Source of the DNA: Pohlia nutans
Lineage: Eukaryota > Streptophyta > Bryopsida > Bryales > Mniaceae
Reading direction: 5' to 3'
DNA: 64,000 nucleotides
NCBI GenBank assembly: GCA_022496805.1
Contig: CM040093.1
Coordinates: 4,590,501 to 4,654,500, forward strand
Shown: in pieces, positions 12,901 through 63,777 of the stretch
Numbering within the stretch: position 1 is the stretch's first letter
Layout of the letters: each line of letters opens with the position of its first letter
Translations under genes and position numbers: made by a program
The notes under the pieces: model-generated
Databases searched by the model: none
The model's input: the letters and a program-made list of their open reading frames with translations, nothing else
What the model was told of the DNA's origin: nothing

Positions 12901-14631
12901 TGCCTCCGGTAAGTCCATGCCAATGCCCACGGAGGACAGTAGCTGTACTGCTCACTCGTTGCATACAGATCTGACAGGACATTGTAAGACAGCACTGTGA
13001 ACGTCCCTGAAGATGCCGTTCGCCCGTCCGTCTCCCCCGGACCCATCCCCTCCATCGAATTCATAGAAATCAGCTGACGCGGGGTTGGAGACGGTGCAGG
13101 AATCACACGTGATGTTTGCCTCTGATGCGGGGTAGCCGCAGGCCGCCCTGTGCTTCCATCGATGGCCACACACTCTATCTTCAGCATGTGACCCACGTCC
13201 TCCATCGTCGGCGTGTAAGTCTTGCCCTGCCCGACCTCGCACCACACATCACCAGCTTCCTGGTTTTGGTTGTGGGATGTCATCCGAATTGGGCTGGAGA
13301 ATACGGACCCATTGCTGTGGTTAGCCGAAGTGTACGTTGCAGCACCACCTAGACTCCCATCCAGAGATCGCAGAGTCTTCGCTGGATTCGAGTTGAACGA
13401 GAACGGGGACTCTTCCTCTTCGATGCCATTTTCTCGCTTGTCCGCGGCCTCCTGGTGCATGATCAGGTGCTGTCGCCATGAATCCGTGAAACACTTCTGC
13501 GTGCAATGCAAGCTCTTCGACTGAGCAAGCTTGGCTTTCAAGCACTGGACACATTGCAACGTAGCAGCTTCCGATGGATGTACACTGCAGACTAGAACCT
13601 GCTGCTCACTCTGTAGTCGAAACCTATACATTGCACAAGTAGACAGCAAAACAGATCAAACTTCTTCACTGAGAGACTAAAGATGGAGGTCGTAGAAACA
13701 TTACCAACAAAGAGAACTATACTCAAGTCTCACGACGACCCCGTCTTAAACGGTGTCAAGTCATTATCAAACACCATCGTGGCAACCGTACACTCAGACC
13801 TCTTTAACATGGCCTTCTCTAAAATGACCTTCTAGAATATCCAACAGAATTGCCACACTGTAGCACAATTGTGACATTCAAATTATGTCATTTTTGGAGG
13901 ACCCCAGGCAAGGTATATCCAAGAAAAAGCCCGTCAAAAAAAGTGACCAAAAAAAATCCGCCAGTGTGTTCAATCGCAGATTTTTGCCATGTAATACTAT
14001 CAGAAGCATTGAGAACGTGACAACTAGCTCGACAGGACTTCATTCGCACACCGTAAAAAAAGAGACACAGCAATAACAGAAACCAAAAAAAATTGAAATC
14101 AAAACAGCATGTTCTTTAGTTCCTTGAAAAGTTTACAAGGCGCTGGTGTGTCCAATGCTTCAATACTTCACAGATTTCTACCATGTAATAATATCAGAAG
14201 CATTGAGAACGTGACAACCAGCTCAACAGGACTTCATTCGCACACCGAAAAAAAAGAGACACAGCACTAACAGAAACGAAAAAAATTAGAAATCAAAAAA
14301 GCATGTTCTTCAGTTCCTTGAAAAGTTTACATAATGTACGTCACCAAATCAGACAGATCGCAACCAAAGCATACCCTAATTCAGTAGAAAGACAAAACTC
14401 TGCCATCCCAGGATCGTTACATTGAGAGCCGAAGTCACGAGAAAGGACGAAGAATGTTAAACCCCATACATACCATCGGCACTGAAGGAAATAGCCGTCC
14501 GTGGACGACGCCTCGGTGACATCTTCAGGGGAAAGGCTGGAGTCGCCGCGACGCAGCAGTACATACGCCGACAACTCGCACCCTACGATCGGAATGTCGG
14601 TCGGGAGGTGCACCCGCACCACACTCAGCAT
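9986..14631 (-). CDS. CCR4: CCR4-type deadenylase (carbon catabolite repressor protein 4)
   Basis: Eleven exons: 14631-14474, 13623-12846, 12616-12530, 12252-12169, 11986-11903, 11692-11594, 11360-11307, 11083-10992, 10901-10787, 10524-10374 and 10131-9986. All borders are GT-AG, phases agree, and the total is 615 residues, close to Arabidopsis CCR4a/b. The product is the exonuclease subunit of CCR4-NOT that shortens mRNA poly(A) tails. The N-terminus opens MLSVVRVHLPTDIPIVGCEL. A Cys/His-rich MYND-like zinc region follows (CSVHPSEAATLQCVQC to QHLIMH), the region linked to CAF1 binding in plants. The C-terminal half is the exonuclease/endonuclease/phosphatase domain with SYNVLSD, LQEV (catalytic Glu), YTGSVYVIDGCATFFRRD, ANTHIHAN, AGDFNSVPGS and EWSSDHIALLAEF. 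All active-site motifs are intact, so I expect a working gene. Plants have several paralogues and I cannot say which this is. Confidence 0.93.
13977..14331. repeat. Two ~160-bp direct repeats in CCR4 intron 1
   Basis: Units 13977-14136 and 14171-14331 share long blocks such as ATCAGAAGCATTGAGAACGT and GACTTCATTCGCACACCG. They differ at scattered positions. The duplication lies wholly inside the first intron and does not affect the coding sequence. Confidence 0.8.
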
Positions 14632-27438: not shown

Positions 27439-28319
27439 TCAATCCTGCTCTGAGTCACAATACTCTAAATCATCTACGGATGTGTCCTCTTGTCTGAGGC
27501 GTTCTAATGCTTTAGCAACCCCCTCCGGGGCTACTTCCATTGCATCGCTCAAAATAGGTGTTTTCGGTATGAGATCCGAATCCAGGTCTGTGGCTTTGAG
27601 TCCGGGAAAATCACATGCTCTTCCCAATGATATGCATTGTACTTCATCCGTGAGTTGGTGTTTAGAGAATGACCGAACTCCTCGTAGTTCTCTACGCAAC
27701 ACAACTTCCCATCCACGCTTGGCCACATCCCGTGCAAAAAAAACCTGTTCGATGTGGAGCGGGAAAGCAAATGACTGTGCAGAGTATGGGATCAATCTCT
27801 CAAAATTCACGGTAGTGAAACCGTAATCATCGCGCTTCATGGTGGCGCCATCTCCTCTCATGTTTGCAACCACCCAATTGCAATAGAGGACCACCACCTC
27901 AAACTGTTCATAGTCCACTGAAAGGATTTCCTCCACCCACCCCACGTACTCCAACTCCGCAGCCCGAAGATTTGTATCCTTGGTACCCGCGCGACAAAGT
28001 TGTCGAAAGGTTGCGACTACCCCCGAGTCCGCGGTTGTCAATTGCGTCTCTGCACTCCGGACACAGAGGTGGTTTCCATATGCATACATAGATCGATACG
28101 ACTTGGCTACGTCCGATAGAGGTAGCATCAAGGCCCTCACGTCTTGGGGGACCTTTTCGTCCCCATCTTCTATAGCCCGTATCACAGCCTTTGGAAATCA
28201 GACGTGGAAATCTTCGTCGCACATCTCCGAAGGGTACACTACCCTAGCCTTCCGCTTCTTGCGCCTATACTCGTGACGCTCCGCTTCCCGACGTGCCATG
28301 TCATACTCGTGTCGCCTGT
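27439..28319 (-). pseudogene. CACTA transposase C-terminal exon (DUF4216 domain)
   Basis: The exon starts after an acceptor TCCTACAG at 28319 and reads RRHEYDMARREAERHEY, then a basic stretch. A single in-frame TGA follows at 28198-28200, and the frame then stays open to 27439. The region YVGWVEEILSVDYEQFEVVV with YCNWVVAN, DDYGFTTVNFERL and QVFFARDVAKRGWEVV matches the DUF4216 pattern found C-terminal in plant CACTA TNP2-type transposases. The tail is acidic. The rest of the transposase was not recognised between 28.3 and 30 kb, so this is a remnant. A frame at 28914-29060 (RMEEGEQERLKHLQLWQEEE) may be another exon piece. Confidence 0.8.
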
Positions 28320-31994: not shown

Positions 31995-32349
31995 TGTTAG
32001 ATTTAAGAAAGACAATGTGCACAGAAGGTAAACAATAAATAAAGTTTATTGATATGTGACTTGCCACCCAACCATAGAAGTGAGATCTTGTCCAATAGAC
32101 AATTGTATCTCCTTCACCCACCAAGCCACACTTATAGTCCTAGTACCGTCTATCTACAGACTTAGAATATGTACAGACTAACTAGACTATTACTTTGGTG
32201 TTCTAACTAACTTGGAGTCATAGACTCTTGGTCTATCAGTTCCCTCATAAGTAACTTAATTACCATATGAGTAACTTAGGCATAGACCCTTGGTCTATCA
32301 GTCCCCTCATGAGTAACTTAATTACCACATGAGTAACTTAATTCCAACA
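31995..32349 (-). repeat. Copia 3' LTR
   Basis: 355 bp, TG...CA ends, nearly identical to 36634-36988. Confidence 0.95.
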
Positions 32350-32358
32350 CTCCCCCAT
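32350..32358 (-). other. Copia polypurine tract
   Basis: On the minus strand ATGGGGGAG directly precedes the 3' LTR. It primes plus-strand DNA synthesis in this element class. Confidence 0.8.
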
Positions 32359-32418
32359 AGTTAGAACCACCTAAAGTAGATAATAATGCAGTGCCACATT
32401 ATTTACTATAACTTAGTA

Positions 32419-35400
32419 CTACTCTAAGTCCTCTAATTTCCTCTTGAGTGACTTGATAGGTAGAACTCCAAGTCTACTCTTACAATACTCAAATTTAGCC
32501 TTAGGTAGGCTTTTGGTGAATGTATCTGCCACCATTTGGTCTGTACCCAAATAAACAAACTCCACCTCATTAGATTTAACCTTGGATCTAATGAAATGAC
32601 ACCTACACTCAATGTGTTTAGTGCGTCCATGAAATTCGGGAATCTTAGTCATAGCTGTACAACTTTGACTATCACAGTAAATTACTGTAGGCCCTTTCTG
32701 AGGAAACCCCATTTCCTCTAGAATGTGTCTAATCCATATAGCTTCCTTGGTTGCTTCTCCTGTTGCGTAATATTCAGCTTCGGCACTTGATTGAGCAATA
32801 GCTTTCTGTTTGACACTGTTCCAAGAAATGGCTGCATTGGCTAACATAAAAACATAGCCAGTTCTTGATCTCCTTTCTTCCGGATCTCCAGCCCAATCAG
32901 AGTCACAATATCCAATCACTTGCAAATTGTCATCTCCTTTGTAGACCAAGCCCTCATTGCTTGTCCCATTGAGATATCTCCATATTCGTTTTACCGAAGA
33001 CCAATGCTTGAGTCTTGGATTAGAATTGTACCCAGCTACCATACTTACTCCTTGAGATAAATCTGGTCGAGTAGTTATAGCTAAATACATTTGGCATCCC
33101 ACTGCTGATTTGTAGGGAATTGCCTGCATTGCTTCCTCTTCTTCTAGTGTAATCTTGTTTACACACTGAAGATTGCAATTAGCCTCTAATGGAGTAGACA
33201 TAGGCTTAGCATGACTTAAGTTAAAGTCTTTAAGTTTTTGCTCAATGTACTTTGACTGGCTAACACACAAGATGCGTCTTTGTCTATCTCTAGTAACTTG
33301 AAGATTTAAACCGGAGTAAAGATCTCCCATGTCTGTCATTTAATATTTCTCTGACAAAGCCTTCTTGATTCTATTCGTTAATTTCAAATCATTGCTGAAA
33401 AGAAATGAATCGTCAATATATAAGGCTAACCAAAGAAAGACTTCACCTTCATGTAAAATGTAAAGGCCGTTGTCTTTGACGCTTCTTGTAAATCCAAGGC
33501 TGAGTAAAAACAAACTGATATGTTCGTTCCACATTCGCGGAGCTTGTTTCAAGCCGTAGATCGATTTCAGGAGCAAACAAACATAATCTTGTTCCCCCTT
33601 CTTGATGAAGCCTTCAGGTTGCTTCATACAAATTGTCTCGTTCAAATCTCCATTTAGGAATGCTGTCTTCACATCCATCTGCTGGATCTCACAGTCAAGA
33701 TTTGTAGCCATAGCAAGTAATAAGCGTATAGTGGTCATTCTTACCACCGGGGAGAAAGTCTCATTGAAGTCAAGACCTTCAATTTGATCATAGCCTTTTG
33801 CTACCAACCTTGCTTTGTATTTGTCCAAACTCCCATCGGCTCTTCGTTTGAGTTTAAAAACCCACTTGCAGCCCAGAGGCTTTCTATTTGGAAGTAATTG
33901 GACTAATTTCCAAGTTTGCTTCTCTATCAATGAATTGTACTCAGATAGAATTGCTTCCTTCCACTTCTCACCATCTTCTCTTGCTAATGCTTCAGTCAAA
34001 GTAGAGGGGTCATTCTCAACAACCAAATTAATGGACTCTAGTAATTTAAGAGAAGGTTTTCTTACTCTAGTTCCCCTTCTTACTTGAGGCTCATGAGGTA
34101 TTTGTGGTAAATCTCCTCTTTCTACCTCTATGTCTATTTGGTCACTATCCTCAACGTGATCTGACTCGTGATCTTTGTCTTGATCATCAACAAGATCTTG
34201 GGCATCATCTTTGTCATCACCTTTGACAAGATCTTTGATGCGATCTTGGTCACTATGAGAATCTAGATCTTTGGGAACTACTCTCTGGTGACTTTCAATG
34301 AAGTCTACATCACGGCTAAAGAACATTTTTCTTTTGATAGGATCAAACAATTTATAGCCTTTAGATTGATCACTATAACCAACAAAAATGCAATCTTTAG
34401 ACTTCATGTCTAATTTTTGCCTTTGCTCATCAGGAATTTTAGCAAATCCTTTACATCCAAAAACATGAAGATGAGCATAGATTGGTTTGGTGCCATACCA
34501 TAGTTCCCAACTCGTCTTGGATATGAGGGCCTTGATTGGTGTGATGTTCTGCAAGTAACACGCAGTAGACACTGCCTCAGCCCAAAATCTTCGTTCCAAA
34601 TTCGAGCTCTTCAACATGCATCTGGTTGCCTCCATCAAAGTACAATTCTTCCTCTCGGAAACACCATTTTGTTGAGGTGTGTACGAAATAGTGAGTTGGC
34701 GCGCAATCCCATTGTTCTTGCAAAATTCATTGAACTCCTTTGAAGTGTACTCTCCTCCATTATCACTCCTCAAAATCTTAATGGATTTTTGAGTGTGATT
34801 TTCAGCCCAGGCTTTAAAAACCTTATACTCATTGAATGCCTCCGATTTAGCTTTAAGAAAAGCTATGTATGTAAATCGAGAGAAATCATCAATAAAGGTG
34901 ATGAAATATCGTGAACCTCCAAGAGAAGAAGGGAGCGGCCCAACAATATCCGAATGGATAATCTCCAACAACTTAGTTGCACGAGTTGCCGTGTCGACAG
35001 GAAATTTCTTCCTACTTTGCTTGCCATACAAGCATGCTTTGCACGTAGGCCAATTCTTCAAGTCCCCTTCATTGAATTTGAGAGTGGGCTCCATTTCTTT
35101 AATCGCCGTCATCTTCTGCACACCAATGTGACCAAGTCGTTCGTGCCAGAGTTGAACATGATCTTCCTTGTTGGCTAAAAAGTAAGCCAAAGCTTTCTCT
35201 TTGGCTGGATTTCTCCCAATCTTGAATAGGCCATTGATTTCTTCAAGATGTGTAAGTCGAGCTCCATCCTTGTCAGCAACATAAATCTCTTCTGTCAGAT
35301 GAATGCCAAAGCCCGCCTTTCTAAATTCTTGAGCAGAGAGTAAATTCCTAGCCAAACTAGGAACATGCAAGACATTGGTAATCCTTTTCAATTTACCATT

Positions 35401-35820
35401 ATTCAACATGATTGGAATGGTACCTACTCCCTTGATTTCACACTCATTATCATTCCCTACAAAGACAGTTTTTCCTTTGGGTAACACTTTGTACTCTATA
35501 AACCAATCTTTGTGAGACGTGACATGGCGAGTAGCCCCAAAGTCAAGGTACCAAACATCATCATCCTCTCTTACAAGACATGTATCTATCATTAGTAAGG
35601 TAGGACTCTCTGATCTTCTCTCCGATCTTCTAGTCTTGTCAGGTACGACACTTTTACCCTCATGGTTACCCTCTTTGCCCTTCTTGCCTTTACCATGAGA
35701 TTTCGTCTTTTTCTTCTCTTTGCATTGGGAAGCTTTGTGGCCATGTTTACCACAATTGAAGCACTTACCCTTAAATACACCAAGGTGACCAGACTTCTTA
35801 AATTGACCATTTTTTCTCAC
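32419..35820 (-). pseudogene. Copia pol polyprotein with one in-frame stop
   Basis: Starts with a CCHC knuckle (CFNCGKHGHKASQC). The protease region is WYLDFGATRHVT, with F where DSGA is usual. Integrase follows with LWHERLGH...CKACLYGKQ, then IIHSDIVGPL and RSDNGGEY. Reverse transcriptase follows with WKLVQLLP, NGDLNETI and YIDDSFLFSN, and RNase H with GYCDSDWAGDPEERRSRTG. A TAA at 33340-33342 lies just before MTDMGDL and splits the frame inside the RT region; the frame is otherwise continuous. The altered protease motif and the stop suggest loss of function. Confidence 0.92.
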
Positions 35821-35835
35821 AGTTAGTAAGGCACT

Positions 35836-36514
35836 TCAGGTATCTTTAGTTTCACCAGAGAAAACAATCAATCTTTGTTCTTCCTGTAGAATCTTACCAA
35901 TAAGGTAGGATAGATTCTTCTCATTACTATGAATGTTAGTGAAACTTAACCACGAATCCGGTAACGAACTTAAAAGCACATTAATCTTATCTTCGTCAGT
36001 GCAAATGACTCCCACTCCTGCCAAACGATCAACCAATGATCTAAATTTGGCTATGGCACATGCCATACTCTCATACTCATTCACTTTGAAGGACCAAAAC
36101 TCCTTTTGGAGAAGCCTCTTTGAATGCATATCACTCATCTCATAAATGTGACAAAGCTCATCCCATGCTGCTTTAGCAGTGTTACAATGAGTGATCTGAT
36201 GGAGTGGCTCATCTAAGAGATAGAAGACAATAGTAGAGAGGGCTATTTGATCACGTTCTAACCACTTTGTCTTACTGTTATCACTAACAGTACCAACATT
36301 ATTGGCTCCCCCTTCTCCACTCTCTCCTTGGACATTTCCAATTGGTGTCACTTGCAGTGCGAGTTGGCATTGGTTCTTCACCACTTACCAACTTCCACAA
36401 CCCATCCCTCTTCAAGAGATAGATCATCCTCAATTTCCATGAATTGAATCCCTGACCACCAAACTTGTCCAAGAAACTAGTTCCACTGCTAGAACTAGCC
36501 ATGCTAACTTGCAC
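35836..36514 (-). pseudogene. Copia gag with a frameshift and terminal stop
   Basis: The start (MASSSSGTSFLDKFGGQGFN) runs in one frame to about 36350, then continues in another as QIALSTIVFYLLDEPLHQI and CHIYEMSDMHSKRLLQKEFW, typical UBN2-type Copia gag. The frames overlap near 36300-36384. A TGA at 35836-35838 then separates gag from the zinc knuckle, which is in the same frame. Confidence 0.85.
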
Positions 36515-36621
36515 TCGTCAATGCAGCCAACAACTTTGAGACTATGGGGCCAATCCCAGGTTTAACTATAAATCAAATCAAAACCCAAATCAACTCTCTA
36601 CTCTCTCCTTCAATCAACCTA

Positions 36622-36633
36622 GCTCTGATACCA
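36622..36633 (-). other. Copia primer-binding site (initiator Met tRNA)
   Basis: Minus strand TGGTATCAGAGC abuts the 5' LTR and is complementary to the 3' end of plant initiator tRNA-Met. Confidence 0.93.
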
Positions 36634-36988
36634 TGTTAGATTTAAGAAAGACAATGTGCACAGAAGGTAAACAATAAATAAAGTTTATTGATATGTGACT
36701 TGCCACCCAACCATAGAAGTGAGATCTTGTCCAATAGACAATTGTATCTCCTTCACCCACCAAGCCACACTTATAGTCCTAGTACCGTCTGTCTACATAC
36801 TTAGAATATGTACAGACTAACTAGACTATTACTTTGGTGTTCTAACTAACTTGGAGTTATAGACTCTTGGTCTATCAGTTCCCTCATAAGTAACTTAATT
36901 ACCATATGAGTAACTTAGGCATAGACCCTTGGTCTATCAGTCCCCTCATGAGTAACTTAATTACCACATGAGTAACTTAATTCCAACA
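36634..36988 (-). repeat. Copia 5' LTR
   Basis: 355 bp, TG...CA ends, target duplication CTAGT outside. Confidence 0.95.
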
Positions 36989-51566: not shown

Positions 51567-51581
51567 TTTGACGGAGTCCTG
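51567..51581. repeat. Target-site duplication, left, of the large LINE
   Basis: TTTGACGGAGTCCTG, repeated exactly at 63763-63777. Confidence 0.85.
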
Positions 51582-51602
51582 GCTACTTATAGATCTTGCA
51601 TT

Positions 51603-51621
51603 CCTCGTATTGAACACGAGG
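51603..51621 (-). other. Terminal stem-loop of the LINE 3' end
   Basis: CCTCGT and ACGAGG pair around a 7-base loop, 22 bp from the 3' terminus. LINE reverse transcriptases often recognise a 3' stem-loop. Confidence 0.45.
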
Positions 51622-51644
51622 TACAAAGATGTGCATTAAAGCAA

Positions 51645-51765
51645 AAAGACAGATAGATAGAAACACCAACCCAAAGAGATGGGCCGGCGTGAATAAAGTG
51701 TCCGTTCGTAATGTCAATGACCCGATGCCCAACGGACAAAGGGACATTGGAACAATACTACTCTC
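51645..51765 (-). repeat. Dispersed 110-bp repeat, copy 3, within the LINE 3' region
   Basis: Shares CCCTTTGTCC, GGGTCATT, CACTTTATTCA and TTTCTATCTATCT with the copies at 545-660 and 20071-20170. This places the repeat at the LINE's 3' end. Confidence 0.6.
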
Positions 51766-51900
51766 CCCTTTCGAGGATGGACACTATAGTAACCAAAACA
51801 AAGTAACAGTAACAGTAACAAAAAGAAGCGAAGTAGTGATGGGTAAGTGTTAGTTTGTATAAAGGTATGTTTAGTGTTTAAGTTTTATCACCAAGTCATG

Positions 51901-51965
51901 AGTTCTTTGGTTGGTTGGTGAAGAGCGTTGTATCACGCTTATGTGGTCCGGGTTCGAAACCAGTT
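51901..51965 (+). repeat. tRNA-like module antisense in the LINE 3' region
   Basis: The plus strand reads GGTTGGTGAAGAGCG (A-box-like), then 22 bases later GGGTTCGAAACC, a full match to the B-box GGTTCGANNCC. Spacing equals that of a tRNA, but the T-stem does not pair properly. So this is a tRNA-derived SINE head or pol III promoter relic rather than a tRNA gene. It lies opposite to the LINE's direction. Confidence 0.45.
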
Positions 51966-52132
51966 GGGCTCGTTGAGCAGTGGTGTGATACACATGGCTT
52001 GGTGCTGCTAGTGAGCTATCATGGCAGGGAAGTTGTACCAACCAACCGGCCCTTCCTATCCCCTGAGACAAGCTGAGCTAGTTGTTTTGAAAAGAGTGGC
52101 TAGCAGTGGTTTTCACCACTACCCCCTCTCTT

Positions 52133-55100
52133 TTAATGTACTACGTCTGTTGGTATTGTTTGATTATTTTCTATACGTCTTTTATGTAAAAGGATAGATC
52201 CGGCATACTGTATGGCAATGGTATTTATTGCTTTGAATGTGTGTTTTATGGAGGTTTCACAGATGTTGAATTTAGTTTCAAGTAGTTTCATTGAGGGGAC
52301 GTGTGTGGTTCCTCTAGCACCAGCTGTGATGACTATGATGGGATCCACTTTCCAGCCTTGTTGTGTGATATTGTTAATTAGAGGTTGGTATTTTAAAAGT
52401 TTTCTGCCAATTGTTTCTGGTGAAAATCTGTTATTTGTGTATGTAAATTCTATAAATTGTACGGTAAGGTTATCATCAGGGTTTAGAGGTGGCGGGATTT
52501 GGTACGGGAGACCTTTAATGCATAGGATATCTGGTTTGAATCTGGCATTACATTGACATCTTTGTTGATTACAAGTACATGGTAACAACCACGGAGGAAC
52601 TGTATTTTCTTGTGGATTATTGTTGAATGTTCCTGCATTCATGAGAGTGTAGCATCTTGATTTATTTGAGGATAGTATTAATTTTCTTAGTTCCCATACC
52701 GCTTTATTGTGTCTTTTGGTTCTTAGTGCGTGTATGTGGTGTTGTTTGCATATTAAAAGTATATGTAGCCATGTATCTGCATCTTGTGAATTACATATGG
52801 AACAAGTTTTTGAGGGGAATCTTTGTATGCCGAAAATCAATTGTTTTCTAGCATTACCCATGTATTGACCGGTTCTAAATTTTAGTATGCTTGTTTTTTG
52901 TGCGTCTGTTATTTCAGGGTTTTTCCAAAAGTCATTGGACATTTCGTTATCTATGATGGGGTTTGTTGTCCATTTGTTGATGTTTGGGAAGTGTTCTGCC
53001 AGTAGTTCGAGGTTGTGTTCACGGTCATGTTTCTTGATGTATTCTTCAAAACATCTAACTGGTCCTTTGTCTGGTCGTTTGATACGGCCGGGCCAGGTAT
53101 CTTTTTGGAAATAGTAAGGTGTGGTATGTGCAAATTCATGTGGGTTTGCTGCTGGTTGATAGCCTCTTTTCATGGTTCCTTCTTTTGCGAGTTGATCTGC
53201 GTGTTCATTTCCGTTGATTTTGGTGTGTGCTTTAACTTTGTAGATTGTGGTGGGTTGTGTACGTTTTTGTAGCATTTCAACCATTTCTTTTAATATGGTT
53301 TTATCTGCGTGGTTATTTTGTTGGGTAGGGTGTTTTAGTTGTGTGTTTAGAACATGTATACAATTGAGGCAATCAGTAAAAATATGTGCAGGTTCGTTCA
53401 TATATCGAGTGGTGATTAGTGAAAGTGTTTCGTGTATGGCCATTAATTCTGCTCTGAAGCATGTTTGTAGTCCAAGCAGTCTTTTTGATATTTGTACGTC
53501 TGGTTTTGTTGAGTTGTATATGCCATATCCAGCTTTTTCTTTTTTCCAATGGCCATCATCCGCTTCTTTAGGTGGTAAAAAGGATCCATCTGTGTAATAG
53601 CTATATTGTGTTAGAAATTTTAGTGTAGTACTTATTTCAAAGTTTGGAAGGGGATCGATCCACGCGTTTTGTAGATTGTTATAGGGTGGGTATAGAAGTT
53701 TGTTCCATTTTGTGCTTTTGTTAACTTTTGTGTTTAATGGTGTTGGTGGTGCTGTTTGTGTATGGTATTGTGTAATTTGTAGATTTTCGATTGCTGTGTT
53801 TTTGTCGTTTATTTGGTTTATTGTGCCAATGTTGTTGTTTTGATGATGAATACACCATATGTGTATTGCAAGTGGTTCGTTTCGGGTTTTGTTGGGTATT
53901 ATTGGGATTGTTGGTTCGTCATATGTAATGGTGTCCGCGGCAAAGTGTATAATGGCGTGCGTATCCGGGAAGGGTCCTTTGTATGGTGATAGGTTTTGGT
54001 ACCAATTGGTGTCCGGGATTGCTAAAATGGTGACGGTTTCTGGGTCTTGTTTTGCTGCTAGTCTTGCCCAGTGTATTGCTTGTTGTGCTGTTTCGGCATC
54101 ATTTGGGTGAGCATATCCAATACCTTTCCATTTGTATTGAAAGGCTGTTCCTAGTGAGCCAAAAATCATATCTCTAGCGAATGGGGAGAAGAATTGGGTA
54201 GATTTCATGGAACATGTAATTGGTGAGGAAAAGTATGAATGTGTTATATTAAATGTTGTTATTAGTGTGTTTAGAATGCTGGATGGAATGGTATGGTGTG
54301 GTGTTTTTATTGTGTTCTTTTTGTGGTTTTTGTGTTCGTATCTTTGGTATAACCAGACTACTTCCGTTTCAAATGGTTGTATAGCAGGTATTAGTCTGTG
54401 GTTGTTGTATTTATTGTTGTTATATTGTTGCCATAACCATTTTATTCTTGTAGTTGGGATGGTGGTGATATATTTACCGGTGTCATTATATATGTGGCCT
54501 TTATCATTTTGTGTTTGAATGGTGTATTTATTTGTGTCTATGTCTCTGTCTGGGTTGCATTCTATTGTGGATGTTTTGATGTAGGGAGTTATTGTTGGAG
54601 GTGGGATGTGTCTAGTGTCCTTGTTTTGTTCGAGTGTAAATTGTGTATTTATAATATTTTGATAGTGTTTGTTTTTAAGATCTGTGTAGTATTTTGTAAG
54701 TAGGTTTATATTATGATATATTACTGTTGGTAGATTTAGTGGGAATAGTTCGCGTTGTACTAACCATTTATTATATGTTATATGGTTTGAGTCTATCCAT
54801 TGACATAAATAGGTGTTGTATTTTTTTGATATTTTATATTTGTCTTTAGTTGTAATTGTTTTGTGGTTTAATATTGTGTGAATGGGGAATCTTATGGGGT
54901 CGTTTTTTATGTTTTGTGGTGGGGCTAGTTGTTGTGGAGGTTGAGGGTTTTGTACGGGGTTTGTTGGTGTTCTTGGTGTTATTCTATGGTTGTATATTTT
55001 GTATTTATTTTTTAGAGTACGGGGTGGTAAGTGAGTTTGACATGGGTTTGGGCAATCTTCGTCACATTTTGGTTCGCAGAAGAGTTGTTCTGCTATGTTT

Positions 55101-58100
55101 AGTGCACTTTTGTCTAGTTTAGTTGGATTTTGATAGTATATTTTAAATTCTTCTGGTTACATTAGTTTTGTGCCGTTGGGAAGGATGATTTGATTGATAT
55201 TGTAAATTTTGTGTGCCATTAATTTATATAATAATTTGATGGAGAGTTTCGGGTCTAATTGAGGTAGGTTATTTATGACTGCTGAGCGCCATTCTTTTTC
55301 TAGTTCAGTCATGTAAAGTTGAAAATTCTCTTCTGTGCTTTTAAGGTGTATACCAACTTCTGTTTTCAGAAGGAATAATGTTCGTGTTGTAGGTGATGTA
55401 ATGCAGTCTTGTCGTTTAATTCTTAGAATGGCATCTGCACCTTCGGCTTTGACAAGTATGTGTTGTATAAGGCCTTTATATATTATTCCTAGTCTTCCTC
55501 TGTCGTTAAGCGCATTACGAAGTTGTTCACCAATGCATCTGAGGTAGGCATTTTTTAGAGAGAAGGCTTCTAGTCCAAATAGATCATGAGGAAGTTGAGT
55601 TATTATGTTTGCGGTGCTTTTAGGTAGGCCGCATATTGTTTTTTGGATTGCAATAATTTTCTTGTCAAGTTTTTTAATGGTTGGTATCGAGTATGGGACT
55701 GCGTAGAAGCTGTAGGCTATGCCTGCTCTGATTACTGTGTCTACCATACTGATTCTTTGTTTGATGGTGGCAGGACATTTCGATAATTTTTTACATTGGT
55801 CTATTATTTTAGTAGTGGTGATGTGTGTTTGGAGTTTCCATTTCAGTGATGGAACTAATTGTATTCCTAAGTATACATATGGTTCATTCTGATGGAGTAC
55901 TGGTAATGTCTGGTCTCTGTAATTGATTTTTTGGTTTGTGACGTGGGTTTTAAATTTGTTTGGTGGCATTTTGGATTTATTTGGGCAACCGGTAACAGCG
56001 CATTTTGTGACTCCTAAGTCCATGCCCGCCCATTCACAGAATTTGTCGATTTTGTTTAGTTGTATTTGTAGTGATTTTGTATTGTTTGATATAGCTGCTA
56101 AATCGTCTGCGTATGCTGCAGAACTAATTTTGATTTTTGATGTACCAAATGTGTATCCATTTTCTCCTTTTTGTAGCCATCTCAATAGTGGTTCAAGGAA
56201 AATTATGAATAGATATGGACTAAGTGTATCTCCTTGTATGGTTCCTCTTTGAATCGCTATTGGTTTTGTTTTGCCAAAGTGTTCACCCGTAAAAATGGTG
56301 TTTGAGTGGGAGTATATGTTTCCCACTAGCATAATTGTATCTTCCGGGTATCCAAGGTCTTTCATTATAGTTAGGAGTCTTGGATGATCTAGTGAGCCAA
56401 ATGCATTTTTGAAGTCTATATAAAGTAGATATATGTCCTGGTTTGTAAATTTTGCATCTTCTAGTGCTGCTATGAGGAGTTGTAATTGTCTTGCTGTACT
56501 TCTTTCTGCTCTGAATCCTTCTTGGCTATCGTGTAGGATTTGGTATTTTTCACCGTATGCTGATAGTATGTATGTTAGTGTACTGGTAAAGAGTTTGTAT
56601 ATTGTGTTTGCAAGTGCTATTGGTCTGTGATTTGGGAGTTGTGCTGGATTTCCTTTTTTATAAAGTAGTATGGTTAAACTGATTTTCCATGAAGCTGGGA
56701 TTTGTTTTTCTTTGTAGCAATGAGTGAAAAATAAAAAGAGTAGTTTTTGGAAGTTTTCGGGCATGTTTTTTAGTATTGAGTTGGGAATTTTGTCTGGGCC
56801 TGGTGTTTTGTTGTTAGATAGGTTTTTAAGACACATTTCATATGTTTCCTTATCAAAGTGTTTATAGAGTGGTGTTTGTGGATGTCCTCTTTTTTCTATT
56901 ACAAAACCATCAAGGTCGTGCCATGGGTATTGTCTAACTCCGCAAGTACATTGTATTGCATGATCGGGTTGGTAATAGCATGTTGGTACTGTCGGTCTAT
57001 TCCTAACTGATTGTTGTATGTGGATTTCATTTGCTATGTCTTCTGGGTTGGTCAATATGTTGTTATTTCTATCTATAATGCAGTCCAGTGGTGGCGTTTC
57101 TTGATTTTTGAAAACTTTTTTGTTTATTTTCTTTGGGCTTTTGTCGTATAGTTGTCTATATTTTTGAATTGCCTTTTTTATACAACTTTGGGTATATTTT
57201 GTGGTGATTTTACGTGCTTGTATTTTAGCTGTTTTGGCTAGTTCTACTAATGATTGGATCCATTCTGTTTGGTCATATTCTTGGGTTGGAAGTGGTGGAA
57301 TGTTTACATTTGTATGGGCTTTTAATTCTTCAATTATAGGGTGTGTTTGCCAGTTTTGTGTGTTTTTTGTTATGTAAATTGTTTTTCTAATTAGATGGTA
57401 GGTGGATAGGTGTTTTTTCCATGGTTTTTGTAGTTTTCTTGGTAAGAAGCCTCCTTGTTGAGAAGTACGATTTGTTAGTGTTGGGAGCGGAGGTGCGCTA
57501 CAGGTTTCTTGAATTTTGTCTGATATTTTTTGTATCAAGTGATCTAGTTTTGAGCATGATGTTTGCCATTGGATGTCTGTTAGTTGATCATTTGATAATA
57601 TTGTGACGAGTTCATTTATTTGTAGAGCGTTTTCTTCAAAATATTCTATTTTGAATTTTTTCATATTTTCTTGAGGTATGGGGTTTAGAATTCTCGTTGA
57701 TTTATTTGTTATTGGAGTGGGTCTTGCTAATAAAGTGTTTGGTGGAATGTATAATGTTACTGGCGAGTGGTCAGAGTTAAGGTTGTGGTCATTGTCTGTA
57801 GTTGATGTGTACAGAGTATTATTTGGTGTTTTGATGTAGTATCCGTCTATTAGGCTAGTTTGGTTATAATTTTGTCCCCCTTGTCTAGAGTACGGACAAT
57901 TTGTTGATATATATTCTAATTGGAGATTATTTGTAAATGTTCTCCATTCTATATCTTCTGCTTGCGGTAAAGTTGTGTCTGTGTCATTTCGTCTTCCAAT
58001 AAGTGCTATGTCTCTATTAAAGTCACCACACAATATTTGTATGGTATTTGGATGTGCATTAATTTGTTGCGTTATATTTTGTTGGATCATTGGTATATAT

Positions 58101-59140
58101 TGTATGTCTTCTGCGTGTGATGGCATATACATGTGGATAATTAGCCAAGTTTGTAGTGGCTTGTTGTCTATTTTTATTATTTGTAGATATGGTGATATTT
58201 CCTTGGGAGTAGGGATTTTAGTAATGTTACCAGGATAGGCGTATTTTTGGTGTATTAGTGTGAGGAGACCACCTCTAGCGGGTATGTATTGCATTCGTTG
58301 TTGCATGCATCTTGTAAGGGCATGTGTGTTATTAAAAATTAATTTGTATTTTGGAAATAGGTTTTGTAAATATTTGGTGGATTTTGTAGCGGTTAGTTTA
58401 GTTTCTTGTATTGTGATGATAGCGGGTTCATCCGGTGTGTTGATTAGTTCATGTAAGTTTGGGAGGGCCGTATTTAGTGATGAGGCATTCCATGTAATAA
58501 ATGTGGTATTGTGACTTGTTGTATGTATTTCTTGTGGTTGTATTGTAGGTATGTTTGGGAATGGTGGAGGGTGCGTGTATTCGTGTAATGATTCGTGTAT
58601 TTTTAAGGTTTCTTCTAACATGTTGATGGGGAGAAATGGGAATTTGTCGGTCATGGTTTGAAGGGTTATTGGACCATTATGTTGGTGAATAAAGGTATAA
58701 ATTTCTTTGTGTATTGTGTTTGGTGGGTTTATTAGGTTTTGGTTATTGTTAGTAAATTCTATGTATGGGTGTATAGTTGAGATGTGTCTTTTGGGTGGGT
58801 TTTGTAGTAGGGACATTTTTTCTAGCAGTATTGTTGTCCAGTCTGGATTGGGGATTTGTGTTAAAATTTGATCACATGTTTCTCTTGATGGACTTATTGT
58901 AGTGATAAGTGCATATAATATTCTTGGTGATGGATGATGTTGATTTTGGTAGATATAGTTTGATATGTGGGGGTAGTCGTTTTTGGCTTCTGCATGGTTT
59001 GGGTGTGTTGTTTTTAGGATAGATGAGAATTGTTTTGCTAAATGCTGGTATTCTGGTTGTAATTTAATCGTGCTTGGTATAAAGTATGTTTTGGATCGTC
59101 TTTTGTGTGTTGGTGGATGCGTTTTTAGTAAGTCGGGCAT
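52133..59140 (-). CDS. LINE ORF2: APE endonuclease, RT, RNase H, CCHC, restriction-like endonuclease
   Basis: One reading frame of 2335 codons with a single TAA at 55157-55159 (after residue 1327); I read every codon across 54241-55160 and found no other stop. Residues 1-210 are unassigned. APE endonuclease is at about 213-465 (TFITWNASS, IQETK, GDFN, SDHSP). RT is at about 775-1060 (NKTPGPDKIP, SQEGFRAERS, YIDFKNAFGSLDH, GTIQGDTLSPYLF, YADD at 1010). Past the TAA comes a Cys cluster (LFCEPKCDEDCPNPC) and unassigned sequence. Numbered from the ATG at 54208, RNase H has YTDGS (D207), AELMAI (E254), FTDC (D279) and NEHADQLAKEG (D338). A CCHC motif follows (C469, C472, H482, C487), then KRHN at 498-501, FKPD at 557-560 and FIEFTY (E587) with K603/K606. 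This is the order of the R2-type endonuclease. The TAA may be one C-to-T change from CAA. Confidence 0.88.
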
Positions 59141-59164
59141 GGGCCCGGGGTTGGATTCGATGTC
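59141..59164 (-). other. 2A-like ribosome-skipping motif before ORF2
   Basis: In the ORF2 frame, immediately upstream of its first ATG, the codons read D-I-E-S-N-P-G-P, preceded by HQLLILCR. This fits the 2A consensus D(V/I)ExNPGP with the usual Leu-rich run in front. The frame stays open upstream to 59647 (about 169 codons, Asn/Thr/Lys-rich) but contains no ATG. Use of the motif would therefore need a non-AUG start, splicing or a frameshift from upstream. 2A-like sequences are known at the N-termini of LINE ORFs such as trypanosome L1Tc. Confidence 0.75.
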
Positions 59165-59257
59165 CCTGCATAATATTAATAATTGGTGTACGGAGTTTCT
59201 TTTTAGGTGAGATTTTTGGGCTATTTTTTCCTTTTTCTTTTTACTTTGTCTATTTTG

Positions 59258-59622
59258 GACGAGGCCGGTAGGCCGAGTCCATTGTTGGTGGTTTTTTATG
59301 ACGAGGCCGTTAGGCCGAGTCCAATTATTTTGTTTGTTGGTTTTTTGATTTTTGTTGGTTTTTATGTTTTTTCTTTTTGCTTTATGTATTATGTATTTAT
59401 TATTTGTTTTGTCGTGGTTGCTTGGTTTGTTTTTGTTGGTATAGATTTTGAAGTTGTTATTTGTATAGGTATTTGTATAGGTTTTTGTATGAATATTTGT
59501 ATGAATATTTGTATAAATATTTGTATTGGTATTTGTATTGGTATTTTTATTGGTATTTTTATTGGTATTTTTATTGGTTTTTGTATTTGTATTTGTATTT
59601 GTATTTGTACAAAGAGTATTAT
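59258..59622. repeat. Spacer repeats between ORF1 and ORF2
   Basis: GACGAGGCCGGTAGGCCGAG and a one-base variant occur at 59258 and 59300. Further right, 59461-59610 is a run of TTTGTAT / TTTTATTGGTA units. On the minus strand one frame gives Thr-Asn repeats, another Gln-Ile / Lys-Ile-Pro-Ile repeats. These are treated as composition effects. Confidence 0.75.
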
Positions 59623-59861
59623 ATAGTCGTATATGTATTTTTTTGTATTAGTATAAACCTTTTTATATATTGTGTATAGTATTACAGTATATGTATACCA
59701 AAAAGGTATGTATATGTCTTTGGTATTTCTATACTGTATAATACTGGACAATATACCGTATAAATACCGTATAAATATTGAATGGTAAATAGTACAGAGT
59801 AAGAAATTTCTAATACTATGAAGTATACAAAATACTATGTATTCTACTCTTTGGTTTTTTT

Positions 59862-61712
59862 TCAATCCACATTTTTTGAGTATTCTATGGCGGGGCGGGA
59901 AGTACTTCCCTTGATGTCTCCAAGTCCCTTGATTGCAAGCATGATATTCTTGTGGACGGCGTCGATCTTTGCTTGTAGTTCATTGTGCTTGGCGTCGTTG
60001 AGGAGTCTCTCTTCCTTCATCTTCTTCTCCATTGACCACTCTATATCAAATTTCATCTTCTTGTTCTCCTCCCTCATGGCTTTGTTGCTTTCTTGTATGA
60101 TCGAAACCACGTCTTCTTTGGTGATGGCGGGGGTAGTAGAGACTAGTGTTGTCACCGTGTTTATCAAGGCTTTGTTGATATCATTGAAACCCCATTTTTC
60201 AATCATTTCCTTGGTTGGTGGCAACTCACCATCCAAGCTTCTCCTATGGGGAGCAAAATCAACATAGTGCCCACCAATTATGTGGGTCTTATTGACAAAA
60301 GAACGGTAGACAATGGGGTTAGTACACTGGACATTGGCACTACCATTGTGCATAGTCCCAAGTTCCCTATGGTACCAAATGGAGGCAATGTTCTTGCTCT
60401 CCATTGTTTTGGTAATTGCCTCGGTTGTGTCCACAATAGATTTCAAGATAGGTAAATGAGACAATGTTAGTGTTAGAGCATCCTTCATGGCCCTAGCCTC
60501 GGGAGTGATACGGGGGGCAAAGTTGAATTTTTTTTGTGGCATACTTATCTCTTGGTTAGCGGCTACTTGATGTAGCCGTATTTTCTCCGCTTGCTTAGGA
60601 GTAGGAGCCATGATAAAAGCATAACCCTCATGGGTTTTCTTTTGAACATCTACTATCTCATAGTCATGCTTTTTGAGGAAGCTATTCCTCAAAATGTCAT
60701 GAAAAATGGTGCAAGCGGAGGTTCCAACAAGGTTATCACTATTAATTTTAACGGAAAGATTGGTGTTTCTAGAAACGTTGTGATAGCTCTTACAAACCTT
60801 GCCAAGGACAAGGTTAGAGCTATGCGAGTTCGAGTATCCTTCAACATCCTCAAAGTTAAGAACAAAAGGGCGGAGCCCTTTAAGCAAACCTATACCATCG
60901 GTCTCGGGGTGTAGAAGATGGAGTTTGACAACTCCATTCCACACTCCCCTTTGGCCTCCCCTTTTAGCGCTAAAACACAAAACCGCAATAGGATCTATAA
61001 TATCAATGCCAAGGGGTATTTCCATATCCACAAGCCTTTGCATGATCATAGATTTTGCAACATCATGAAGGATGGGGTAGTCAACATGTACCTCAAAATG
61101 GATTTCCACGTGGAAATCAAGGGCCAAACCGGTGGAAGGGTTTACCGGAATTTCAAATGGTATTTGAGTCAAGTTGTAGTGTTGCCCGATGATGCCGTCG
61201 TTTCTAACCATGGGATAGAGTATTTGTGGTGTTCGTGGGAATGCCACGGTTGCATTCCAAGCTTCATTAGCTTCTTTTTCGGAAATCCCTCTCGTGGTCA
61301 TGTCCACGATAGACTCATCCATGAAAATAACGTCCTCCTCACGTTCACGGCTTAGTCTTTCCATAACTTGGAAGCCTAGCCAAAAGATTGGGTTTCTGGG
61401 CCCAATGTTAATGGTCTGTGATGGAGAGCTGACAGGCTCTGTTTGGTCATGGTCTTCAAAGTTGAGGTCGTCGGATTGCTCAGAGAGTGCTGTCCCTTGG
61501 TTCTTCCTGTTGTTGTGTCGTCCTTGCTGCTGTCGGAGTCGTCTCCGTCTTGGGTGCTGCCTTTGTCCTTGGTCTTGTTGCTGCTGTTCCCGCCGTCCCC
61601 CACGTGTTTTCCTGCATTCAAATTCCTTCTGCCGTTGCTCCGATTGTCTTCTGCGCTGCGATGGTTCTCCCTCGCGATCCCTGCGTCTGCTGGCTGGTCT
61701 CTTAATTTGTGG
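59862..61712 (-). CDS. LINE ORF1, main segment
   Basis: The frame is open from 61712 to the TGA at 59862-59864; the first ATG is at 61364 (500 residues from there). Before that ATG the frame is Arg/Gln-rich (GGRREQQQQDQGQRQ), then acidic, ending NIGPRNPIFWLGFQV, so the true protein likely begins upstream in another frame or exon. The centre (IPFEIPVNPSTGLALDFHVE, KLHLLHPETDGIGLLKGLRP, YEIVDVQKKTHEGYAFIMAP) alternates strands and helices and could be an RRM-like fold; that is inference. The C-terminus (NKAMREENKKMKFDIEWSME and following) is a predicted coiled coil. I expect an RNA-binding ORF1 protein. No zinc knuckle is seen. Confidence 0.6.
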   Translation of the reverse strand, partial: PQIKRPASRRRDREGEPSQRRRQSEQRQKEFECRKTRGGRREQQQQDQGQRQHPRRRRLRQQQGRHNNRKNQGTALSEQSDDLNFEDHDQTEPVSSPSQTINIGPRNPIFWLGFQVMERLSREREEDVIFMDESIVDMTTRGISEKEANEAWNATVAFPRTPQILYPMVRNDGIIGQHYNLTQIPFEIPVNPSTGLALDFHVEIHFEVHVDYPILHDVAKSMIMQRLVDMEIPLGIDIIDPIAVLCFSAKRGGQRGVWNGVVKLHLLHPETDGIGLLKGLRPFVLNFEDVEGYSNSHSSNLVLGKVCKSYHNVSRNTNLSVKINSDNLVGTSACTIFHDILRNSFLKKHDYEIVDVQKKTHEGYAFIMAPTPKQAEKIRLHQVAANQEISMPQKKFNFAPRITPEARAMKDALTLTLSHLPILKSIVDTTEAITKTMESKNIASIWYHRELGTMHNGSANVQCTNPIVYRSFVNKTHIIGGHYVDFAPHRRSLDGELPPTKEMIEKWGFNDINKALINTVTTLVSTTPAITKEDVVSIIQESNKAMREENKKMKFDIEWSMEKKMKEERLLNDAKHNELQAKIDAVHKNIMLAIKGLGDIKGSTSRPAIEYSKNVD

Positions 61713-61905
61713 CTAGACCTGTCATTGGGTTCGGAGGTTTTTTTACCTTTTGTGGTACGTTTGTTGGGTTCCGTCGCGCCAGCCGTTTTGGACGCGGGTA
61801 CGCTGCCATCTTCGGGTTGTTGTTGATCTTGGCTCCTGCTTGTACGTCCTCATTCTCCAGCATTGCTGCTTCCTTGTTGTCTCTCGTTTCTGGTCCCGTC
61901 CTCTT
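61702..61905 (-). pseudogene. LINE ORF1 segment in a second frame
   Basis: This frame reads LENEDVQAGAKINNNPKMAA, a basic stretch (PRPKRLARRNP) and PMTGLATN before TAA. It bridges the first ORF1 segment and the main segment, each one frame step apart. Either two indels broke ORF1, or short introns are removed here. Confidence 0.45.
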
Positions 61906-62254
61906 GTCTGCTGCCTTGCCCTCTCGCGTTGCGTTGTTCGGTGATGCCTCCTGCGTCAGATTTCCGACTTCTCTCCTTTTGGCTGGCCGTTGCTTCTTTG
62001 CTAAGGGTCTGGTCTCCAATAGCGCGGCGAGCTCTGCGGTCGTTGTCTTCTGCTTCTTCCATTCTGCTGTCCAGGTGTGACTGATTGTCTTGCATTTCTT
62101 GCGAGTCGGTGTTGCTTGTGTTCTTCTTCTTGGAATTCCTAATGCCTTTAGCTTCAAGTAGCCTCTTTAGGCTGGCTGTGGGTGTTTCAGTGTCAATGTC
62201 CATGCTCTGGTTTTCTCCCAAGGGCCTGTTCCACGTAGACATGCGGGTCTCCAT
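61850..62254 (-). pseudogene. LINE ORF1 5' segment in a third frame
   Basis: Starts at an ATG with good context (CCCACCATGG) and reads METRMSTWNRPLGENQSMDI. It continues as a Ser/Asp/Arg/Glu-rich hydrophilic chain and stops at TGA 61850. Composition is that of a disordered LINE ORF1 N-terminus. Confidence 0.5.
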
Positions 62255-63762
62255 GGTGGGGATGTTGGGGCTGGGGTTAGGGTTACTAATGGGGGAATTG
62301 GTGCTACAGGGATTGTAGCTTCGGTTTGGAAACTTGGCATAAACACAGGAGTGAGTGTGGGATCGGTCTATCCTTTGAGCAGAGGTGCTATCGTTGTTGT
62401 GCTTGCTGTCGGGGGTAAGGGTTTCTATTGTGCTATGAACTCTGGGATTAGAGTACCAAATGGGATTATGCTTGCTAACGGGGTCAGTGCAGTGAAAACG
62501 ATTGCTATAGGTGTAAAAACATGTGTTGAACAAATGCAAGATAACAAGAGTACAATAGGAATAAAGGAAGGTGCTGTGATTAAAGCTGCAGTAGGAGTTA
62601 GTATACTTACCTGAATGCTGCTGATGGGGCAGATTTTTTGGTCTTGAAATTCTGCTGCAGTGAGGATGGTGAAGTTTTTTGTATGTTGTGCTCTTTCTAC
62701 GGTGCTGCAGATCTCTGCAGTGGATTGGGTGCGGCCTTTGCTGGTTGTGGGCTGTGGTTCCGGCTTGTGCTGGCCAATGTTGGTGTGGTAGATCGTTGAG
62801 ACTTGGTCTGATGGTGACAATGCTCTTTGGACTCTGGTCTGTGGGTCGGTTTCGGCACTGCTGGTCTTCTTTCGTATGCGGGCACTGATTGTGTTGGTCT
62901 GTTGCTGAGATTGTGTCTCCAATTCCTTTCAGCTCCTTGGGCGCATTGCGGAGTTGGTGTCGGATAGATCTGATGCTGCCAGGTTTGGTTACTGAGTCGA
63001 TTGGAAGGGTGGAGCAGGGGCTAACTGGATCTACACAAGTACGAGCGAAGTAGGCATACTTTGCCTTACAGTGAGGGTGAAGCTGACTATTATAATGAAT
63101 ACTATACTAGATCAGGAAGTGGAAAATGACGCATCGATCTGCAGAGGCTAAAGAAGGTTGAGAATCAGTAGATCTAGTACTAAGAGCATAATTTGGAGTA
63201 TACGAAAGTAAGAGTAGTGGTAAGAAGTTATCTGAAAATGCAGTTGTGATCATGCGCTTGTGGTGGAGATTGCAGTGTGAGGCAGTCGATCGGCTGTTGA
63301 ATGTGGAATGCTGAATCAGTACTTTCGGGCAGAGGGTGTGGCTGGCATGCTCCTTGCGGGAGGATACTCGCACACATTCTGTGGTTCAACAGGTTGCCGG
63401 CGTAGATCTGGATCTACTGCTTCTCCTGGGCAGGAAGACGGGCTCCGGTGGGGGCTTCACTCTTGGCGTTGCAGCGTCTGTGCCCTCAATGACAGCAGAT
63501 CAGATCTAGCTTGAACGCTCTCTCACCAAACTAACGGCGGTACAGAAATCACTCCTAACGCCGCATTTGTGTACACGATCTAGTACATCAGCTTGCACAA
63601 ACCACACAGATCGCTACCTCTCCTGCGCTCAGCTTCGCTCTTCAGACATTCCAGACCCCCTTGCACATCCACTCTCCTATTCGTACGTATGCACCAATGT
63701 ACGGGGAGTACTGAGGTTTGGTTATGAGTTAGCCCAACTTCAAGCAAAAAGACACAACTCAA
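62255..63762 (-). other. LINE 5' region with a possible spliced exon
   Basis: 62922-62611 holds a 104-codon open stretch from an ATG (METQSQQQTNTISARIRKK), ending at a perfect donor, CAG then GTAAGT, at 62611/62610. No acceptor was pinned. The remainder, including GC-rich 63400-63480, is a likely leader and internal promoter. It ends at the 15-bp target duplication. Confidence 0.5.
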
Positions 63763-63777
63763 TTTGACGGAGTCCTG
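63763..63777. repeat. Target-site duplication, right, of the large LINE
   Basis: TTTGACGGAGTCCTG, identical to 51567-51581. Confidence 0.85.

What the first reader, a model, noticed from the sequence alone, without database searches (positions are those of the whole stretch)
51582..63762. Full-length dual-endonuclease LINE in a plant-like genome
ORF2 combines an APE endonuclease at its front with RNase H, a CCHC motif (C-x2-C-x9-H-x4-C), KRHN and KPD...E signatures at its back. The last set is the arrangement of the R2-type restriction-like endonuclease. Having both nucleases in one LINE is the hallmark of Dualen/RandI, which I know only from green algae. This copy is 12.2 kb, bounded by an exact 15-bp target duplication, and almost intact. 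If confirmed in a land plant it would extend the range of this clade or define a new one.
Basis: partly seen in the sequence, partly recalled or inferred. Interest (0 to 1): 0.93.

Follow-up and report, generated by a model that had tools for sequence, protein, structure and literature searches.

The report
Dual-endonuclease Dualen LINE in a moss
A moss genome carries a multicopy 12-kb jumping gene that encodes two different DNA-cutting enzymes plus a domain shaped like a messenger-RNA cap methyltransferase; this type is known mainly from green algae, so the find extends it to a land plant and adds a fifth enzyme-like module to its design.

Summary

Corrections: the element is 51652-63741. Its target duplication is 13 bp (AAGCAAAAAGACA); the 15-bp repeat lies outside it. 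This copy is broken in ORF1 and ORF2; other copies have uninterrupted ORF2 frames.

The parts
51639..51651 (.). target-site duplication, copy at the element's 3' end (AAGCAAAAAGACA)
51652..52132 (-). 3' UTR ending in a (TATC)n tail in sense orientation
   Evidence: 19 of 20 other copies fetched share it to position 518 or beyond of a 594-base query; 16 of 20 end in (TATC)n
52133..59140 (-). ORF2 from its first ATG; 2335 codons with one in-frame TAA
52136..52804 (-). CCHC zinc finger and R2-type restriction-like endonuclease (residues 2113-2335; D2204, E2231)
53177..53605 (-). RNase H domain (residues 1846-1988)
   Evidence: PF00075
53774..54532 (-). PCIF1-like methyltransferase-fold domain (about residues 1537-1789); the NPPF position reads HPND
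55157..55159 (-). in-frame TAA that interrupts ORF2 of this copy
55859..56650 (-). reverse transcriptase core (residues 831-1094, YADD)
   Evidence: PF00078; R2 and L1 RT structures
57758..58498 (-). APE-type endonuclease (residues 215-461)
   Evidence: PF03372 and PF14529
59862..61364 (-). ORF1 conserved core, 500 aa, no Pfam match and no credible PDB match
59871..59877 (-). A AAA AAT heptamer at the ORF1 end in front of the ORF2 frame (possible -1 frameshift site)
   Evidence: pattern found in 4 of 12 stretches searched; no significant downstream fold in these 4
61853..63106 (-). ORF1 N-terminal open frame, in another frame than the core in this copy
63742..63754 (.). target-site duplication, copy at the element's 5' end
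51567..51581 (.). 15-bp repeat outside the element, left copy; not its target duplication
63763..63777 (.). 15-bp repeat outside the element, right copy

Best explanation
This is a copy of a multicopy, probably recently mobile Dualen/RandI-group non-LTR retrotransposon in a moss. ORF2 is a five-module protein: APE, RT, PCIF1-like domain, RNase H, CCHC-RLE. Proposed mechanism: the ORF1/ORF2 proteins bind the element RNA; a nuclease nicks the bottom strand at the complement of TTG|TGAA; the primer, ending in A-3'OH, pairs with the RNA's short-repeat tail; RT copies the RNA; RNase H removes it; the second strand is cut 10-13 nt away, giving the target duplication. I think it most likely that APE makes the loosely specific first nick, and that the CCHC-RLE melts the target as in R2 and makes, or helps place, the second cut. 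The PCIF1-like domain most likely binds the RNA, perhaps its capped 5' end, because the fold is kept while the catalytic motif is not. Shown: architecture, predicted folds, RT placement, target duplications, G|T preference, low pN/pS. Inferred: which nuclease makes which cut, the role of the PCIF1-like domain, present activity.
For: Domains. Folds: RLE; PCIF1. RT clade. Architecture APE-RT-PCIF1-RNH-RLE in 44 of 96 proteins, that is 44 of the 45 with both APE and RLE, this one included. 64 of 64 scored genome matches (the window's own and 63 others at 92-96% identity) cover at least 684 of 691 C-terminal residues; 39 of 64 have no stop there, by my count; 7 of 64 have a stop-free frame of at least 2351 aa (six of these seven seen). 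Target duplications resolved in 11 of 21 copies, 11 of 11 at G|T; chance 6.8e-08 given T and not C. pN/pS 0.12 CCHC-RLE, 0.19 RNase H (8 of 64 copies); 0.14 APE, 0.11 RT, 0.26 PCIF1-like part (9 sequences). Against P0002 the RLE is 64% and the RNase H 65% identical, the PCIF1-like core 55%, stretches between domains 37-50%. Short-repeat tails as in 8 of 8 algal RandI families (PMC3747384 Table 3, passage).
Against: No biochemistry. Copies used for pN/pS were the best protein matches or long frames, which biases pN down, and a stretch between domains (480-770) is as low (0.16), so the ratio does not single out the nucleases. The type Dualen, plant L1, RTE and I were not in the tree. The PCIF1 model is of middling confidence (pLDDT 65.6), and the moss stretch alone does not hit PCIF1 significantly by sequence (E 0.55). 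No cysteine protease, which I recall from the first Dualen description, was found. The roles of the two nucleases cannot be told from sequence.
Confidence: 0.86

Rival explanations
1. Only the APE works; the RLE is a non-cutting relic kept for DNA binding and strand melting.
For: Target duplications of 10-13 bp and a loose short target are usual for APE elements (recalled). In R2 the target is melted around the CCHC finger and the RLE (PMC10499050, passages).
Against: C, C, H, C, R-H, P-D and E are invariant in 13 of 13 aligned sequences; pN/pS of CCHC-RLE is 0.12.
Confidence: 0.3
2. The PCIF1-like domain is an active adenosine methyltransferase acting on the element's own RNA.
For: PCIF1 fold. 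NPEY in 12 and a canonical SPPF in one of 68 proteins read by a rough pattern. pN/pS 0.15 for the first 100 residues of the C-terminal frame and 0.26 for the part before.
Against: HPND at the NPPF position in this element, and mostly non-canonical letters elsewhere.
Confidence: 0.2
3. The element entered the moss lineage by horizontal transfer from an alga or protist rather than by descent from the green-plant ancestor.
For: No Dualen report from other land plants among the listed hits.
Against: In the careful tree the moss lineage is outside a 34-row clade that holds the named algal proteins (98/98), with no close algal relative; only P0002 (unnamed ENA contig, 56% identical over 1294 columns) is near.
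Confidence: 0.3
4. Algal contamination of the assembly.
For: The group is known mainly from algae.
Against: The element lies in a 23.7-Mb contig that also holds a moss-like gene in the same window, its target duplication is in that flank, and scored copies lie on 19 contigs.
Confidence: 0.01

Closest known systems
Dualen / RandI LINEs of green algae
   Same: APE and RLE in one ORF2 with RT and RNase H; RT clade with Haematococcus and Pleodorina proteins; non-A short-repeat 3' tails
   Different: Land-plant host; deep separate RT branch; no protease domain detected. The PCIF1-like domain described here is also present in Haematococcus relatives (P0069, P0070)
R2 elements (28S rDNA, animals)
   Different: R2 lacks APE and RNase H (recalled) and inserts at one 28S site; this element inserts at dispersed G|T sites and has an ORF1
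PCIF1 cap-specific adenosine methyltransferase
   Different: Embedded in a LINE protein; NPPF position reads HPND
Plant L1 LINEs
   Same: APE-RT-RNase H order (recalled; RNase H in plant L1 per PMC4640811 passage)
   Different: 224 of 233 flowering-plant L1 families end in (A)n (PMC3747384 Table 3, passage); no RLE or PCIF1-like domain known to me; here the tail is (TATC)n

Membership tests
Dualen/RandI | ORF2 with both APE and RLE (definition in PMC4640811, passages seen) | tested here: met
Dualen/RandI | RNase H (listed for Dualen/RandI in PMC4640811); here between RT and RLE | tested here: met
Dualen/RandI | RT groups with green-algal dual-endonuclease elements | tested here: met
   49-row clade 100/99 with Haematococcus P0069, P0070 (APE and RLE present) and Pleodorina P0083 (a 1799-aa protein, not among the 45 with both nucleases); type Chlamydomonas sequence not available
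Dualen/RandI | 3' short repeats other than poly(A) | tested here: met
   16 of 20 copies (TATC)n, 3 of 20 other short repeats, 1 of 20 lacks the end; algal RandI 8 of 8
Dualen/RandI | Cysteine protease domain (recalled from the first Dualen paper, which is not held; not part of the definition in PMC4640811) | tested here: inconclusive
   No Pfam match in ORF2 at E<=10 or in ORF1 of two other copies at E<=1; some relatives carry PF02902, PF02338 or PF02099 (I recall these as C48, OTU and Josephin)
R2 clade | RT inside the R2 branch | tested here: not met
   three R2 references form their own branch
R2 clade | insertion at one rDNA site | tested here: not met
   11 different target sequences
Plant L1 | poly(A) tail and APE as sole endonuclease | tested here: not met
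Plant L1 | RT inside plant L1 | not tested
   no plant L1 sequence obtained; the genome search gave no answer
PCIF1 methyltransferase | PCIF1 fold | tested here: met
PCIF1 methyltransferase | NPPF catalytic motif (PMC8868631, passage) | tested here: not met
   HPND in this element

The most novel reading that the evidence does not exclude
Dualen-group LINEs, now including a land-plant lineage, carry a PCIF1-derived cap-recognition module between RT and RNase H. It lets the dual-nuclease enzyme sense the capped 5' end of its own RNA, so that only full-length 10-12-kb templates are completed and second-strand cleavage by the RLE is triggered when reverse transcription reaches the cap.
Probability: 0.25. 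Interest if true: 0.93.

Novelty: new variant of a known kind. Interest (0 to 1): 0.82.

Why it matters
Dualen's position has been read as showing how APE replaced RLE in LINE evolution (PMC4640811, passage). A multicopy family with uninterrupted ORF2 frames in a land plant offers a system in which the division of labour between the two nucleases can be tested. The PCIF1-like domain, present in 44 of 45 dual-nuclease proteins examined, looks like a core Dualen feature, and no report of it appeared among the listed hits. It links retrotransposition to mRNA-cap recognition and gives a concrete hypothesis for template choice.

Tried and rejected
Rejected: the 15-bp repeat as target duplication; chance RLE motif; algal contamination; the element as R2 or plant L1. 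ORF1: no Pfam match and no credible PDB match (best E 0.24). A structured -1 frameshift stimulator after the A AAA AAT heptamer was not supported (z from +0.45 to -1.24 in the 4 stretches that have it; 8 of 12 stretches searched lack the pattern, among them C20_12646 and C15_2088, which do carry ORF1-like sequence). Sequence search of the RLE piece alone against the PDB gave nothing. Motif counts come from a rough pattern that reads the wrong place in some rows (P0001 and P0007, for example) and missed 7 of 75; use for single rows. Rows left out: 61 of 118 RT rows were not in the careful tree (57 rows), to thin the set and leave out long branches. In the larger FastTree run (116 rows) the moss pair joined P0028, P0011 and P0024 at support 91; the careful tree leaves this open. 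Of 20 fetched copies, 10 gave no clear duplication next to the tail; for nine of these only about 4 kb around the expected full-length 5' end was in hand, for C15_2088 15 kb. Weak matches (L016, L017, L018, L027) were not counted.

Papers: the first Dualen paper is not held and is recalled only. No land-plant Dualen among the listed hits (6 of 6; 40 of 8058; 1 of 1; 40 of 95; 6 of 6; 20 of 27); searches are swamped by a personal name and a German word. No PCIF1-retrotransposon report among those (14 of 14; 15 of 30; 10 of 1100); of these I saw passages of only a few. I recall a review of adenine methylases by Iyer and co-workers that might mention such a domain; I could not check it.
Full report
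What is there. The finding lies on the minus strand. ORF2 runs from its first ATG at 59140 to the stop at 52133, 2335 codons in one frame with a single TAA at 55157-55159. Pfam finds APE, RVT_1 and RNase H and, in the read-through protein, PF12237, the PCIF1 family, at 39.8 bits against a cut-off of 31.1. The C-terminal part has the CCHC finger (2113-2131) and RHN (from 2143), D2204 of KPD and E2231.

Relatives. One search with the C-terminal region found one protein, P0002, 62% identical there; one with the RT region found 114. Of P0001-P0096, 44 have the order APE-RT-PCIF1-RNH-RLE, one has APE-RT-RNH-RLE, and the other 51 lack one or more of these parts; whether they are fragments or truly lack them was not settled. 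The PCIF1-like domain is in 75 of 96. None of the 19 more distant proteins P0097-P0115 has it, and none of them has both APE and RLE. Named close members are Haematococcus lacustris and Pleodorina starrii, both green algae. In a 57-row IQ-TREE analysis the moss element and P0002 lie in a 49-row clade (100/99) with these, as a deep separate branch; a 34-row clade with the named algal proteins excludes it (98/98). [quoted passage not shown] It is reported from Chlamydomonas relatives (PMC8226300, passages) and, in a list of repeat classes, from cryptophytes (PMC12747079, passage); a 2015 survey lists it for green algae only (PMC4438587, passage).

Host. The window is G000:C9:4590501-4654500 of a 698-Mb genome in 332 contigs. 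A sugar-transporter stretch is 78% identical to Physcomitrium patens and Ceratodon purpureus, 69% to Sphagnum jensenii and 61-65% to nearly all listed vascular-plant proteins. The host is a moss; the species is unknown.

Boundaries and target. 19 of 20 other copies share the 3' UTR nearly to its end; 16 end in (TATC)n and three in other short repeats, comparable with the 8 of 8 algal RandI families that have non-A repeats (PMC3747384 Table 3, passage). Directly behind the tail the window copy has AAGCAAAAAGACA (given on the + strand), repeated at the 5' end (63742-63754). In 10 of the 20 other copies a 10-12-bp duplication was found at the same place. All 11 pre-insertion sites read G|T; given T and not C the chance is 6.8e-08; the commonest letters are TTG|TGAA. 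The 15-bp repeat lies outside the duplication; in the empty site its two copies frame 78 bp that hold the target, perhaps an older small insertion.

Copies and selection. The genome search scored 64 of 6235 first-look candidates, so the copy number is a lower bound: the window's own and 63 others at 92-96% identity over at least 684 of 691 residues, on 19 contigs; 39 of 64 have no stop there by my count, and seven of 64 have a stop-free frame of at least 2351 aa (six of the seven seen). Two copies have ORF1 frames of 1241 and 1306 aa that overlap the ORF2 frame by 40 nt. An A AAA AAT heptamer lies at the end of ORF1 in 4 of 12 stretches searched, and the first ORF2 ATG is 176-767 nt beyond the ORF1 stop in the three copies examined. 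This would fit a -1 frameshift, but no downstream structure was found, so it stays a guess. ORF1 and the 5' end vary more than ORF2: two copies keep only 70-72% identity in ORF1 (C20_12646, C15_2088), and most of the 20 fetched 5' regions show no match to the window's, as 5' truncation would also give. pN/pS is 0.11-0.26 over all stretches tested, parts between domains included, and the copies were chosen for good matches or frames.

Verdict. A Dualen-group LINE in a land plant, with both nuclease domains and a PCIF1-like module that most of the group's proteins examined here share. The mechanism in the best explanation is inferred from R2 and LINE biology plus the target-site data; activity of the two nucleases and the role of the PCIF1-like fold remain to be tested.

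Noticed in passing
51567-51581 and 63763-63777: 15-bp direct repeat outside the element; in the empty site its copies frame 78 bp containing a CCTCGT/ACGAGG hairpin, perhaps a small earlier insertion.
   Followed up: partly
31995-36979: Copia LTR retrotransposon (RVT_2, rve, Pol_BBD) with 300-bp LTR-like repeats 99% identical, 4639 bp apart; its polyprotein frame is split by a stop at 33340-33342.
   Followed up: partly
27442-28185: DUF4216 fragment, a domain I recall as typical of plant CACTA transposons.
   Followed up: no
12786-13649: Frame with zf-C6H2 and the start of Exo_endo_phos, which looks like an exon of a CCR4-like host gene (name recalled).
   Followed up: no
P0007, P0032, P0068-P0070, P0083: Relatives of the element carry different protease-type domains (PF02902, PF02338, PF02099), so the protease may be swapped between Dualen lineages.
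   Followed up: no
P0106: A more distant RT protein combines RT, an RLE-like region (42 bits) and an AlkB-type domain.
   Followed up: no
G000:C9:6403431 and G000:C9:6428945: Two ORF2 copies with identical scores 25.5 kb apart on one strand, perhaps a segmental duplication.
   Followed up: no
59389-59647: The start of the ORF2 frame runs through a simple-repeat tract that encodes low-complexity peptide.
   Followed up: partly
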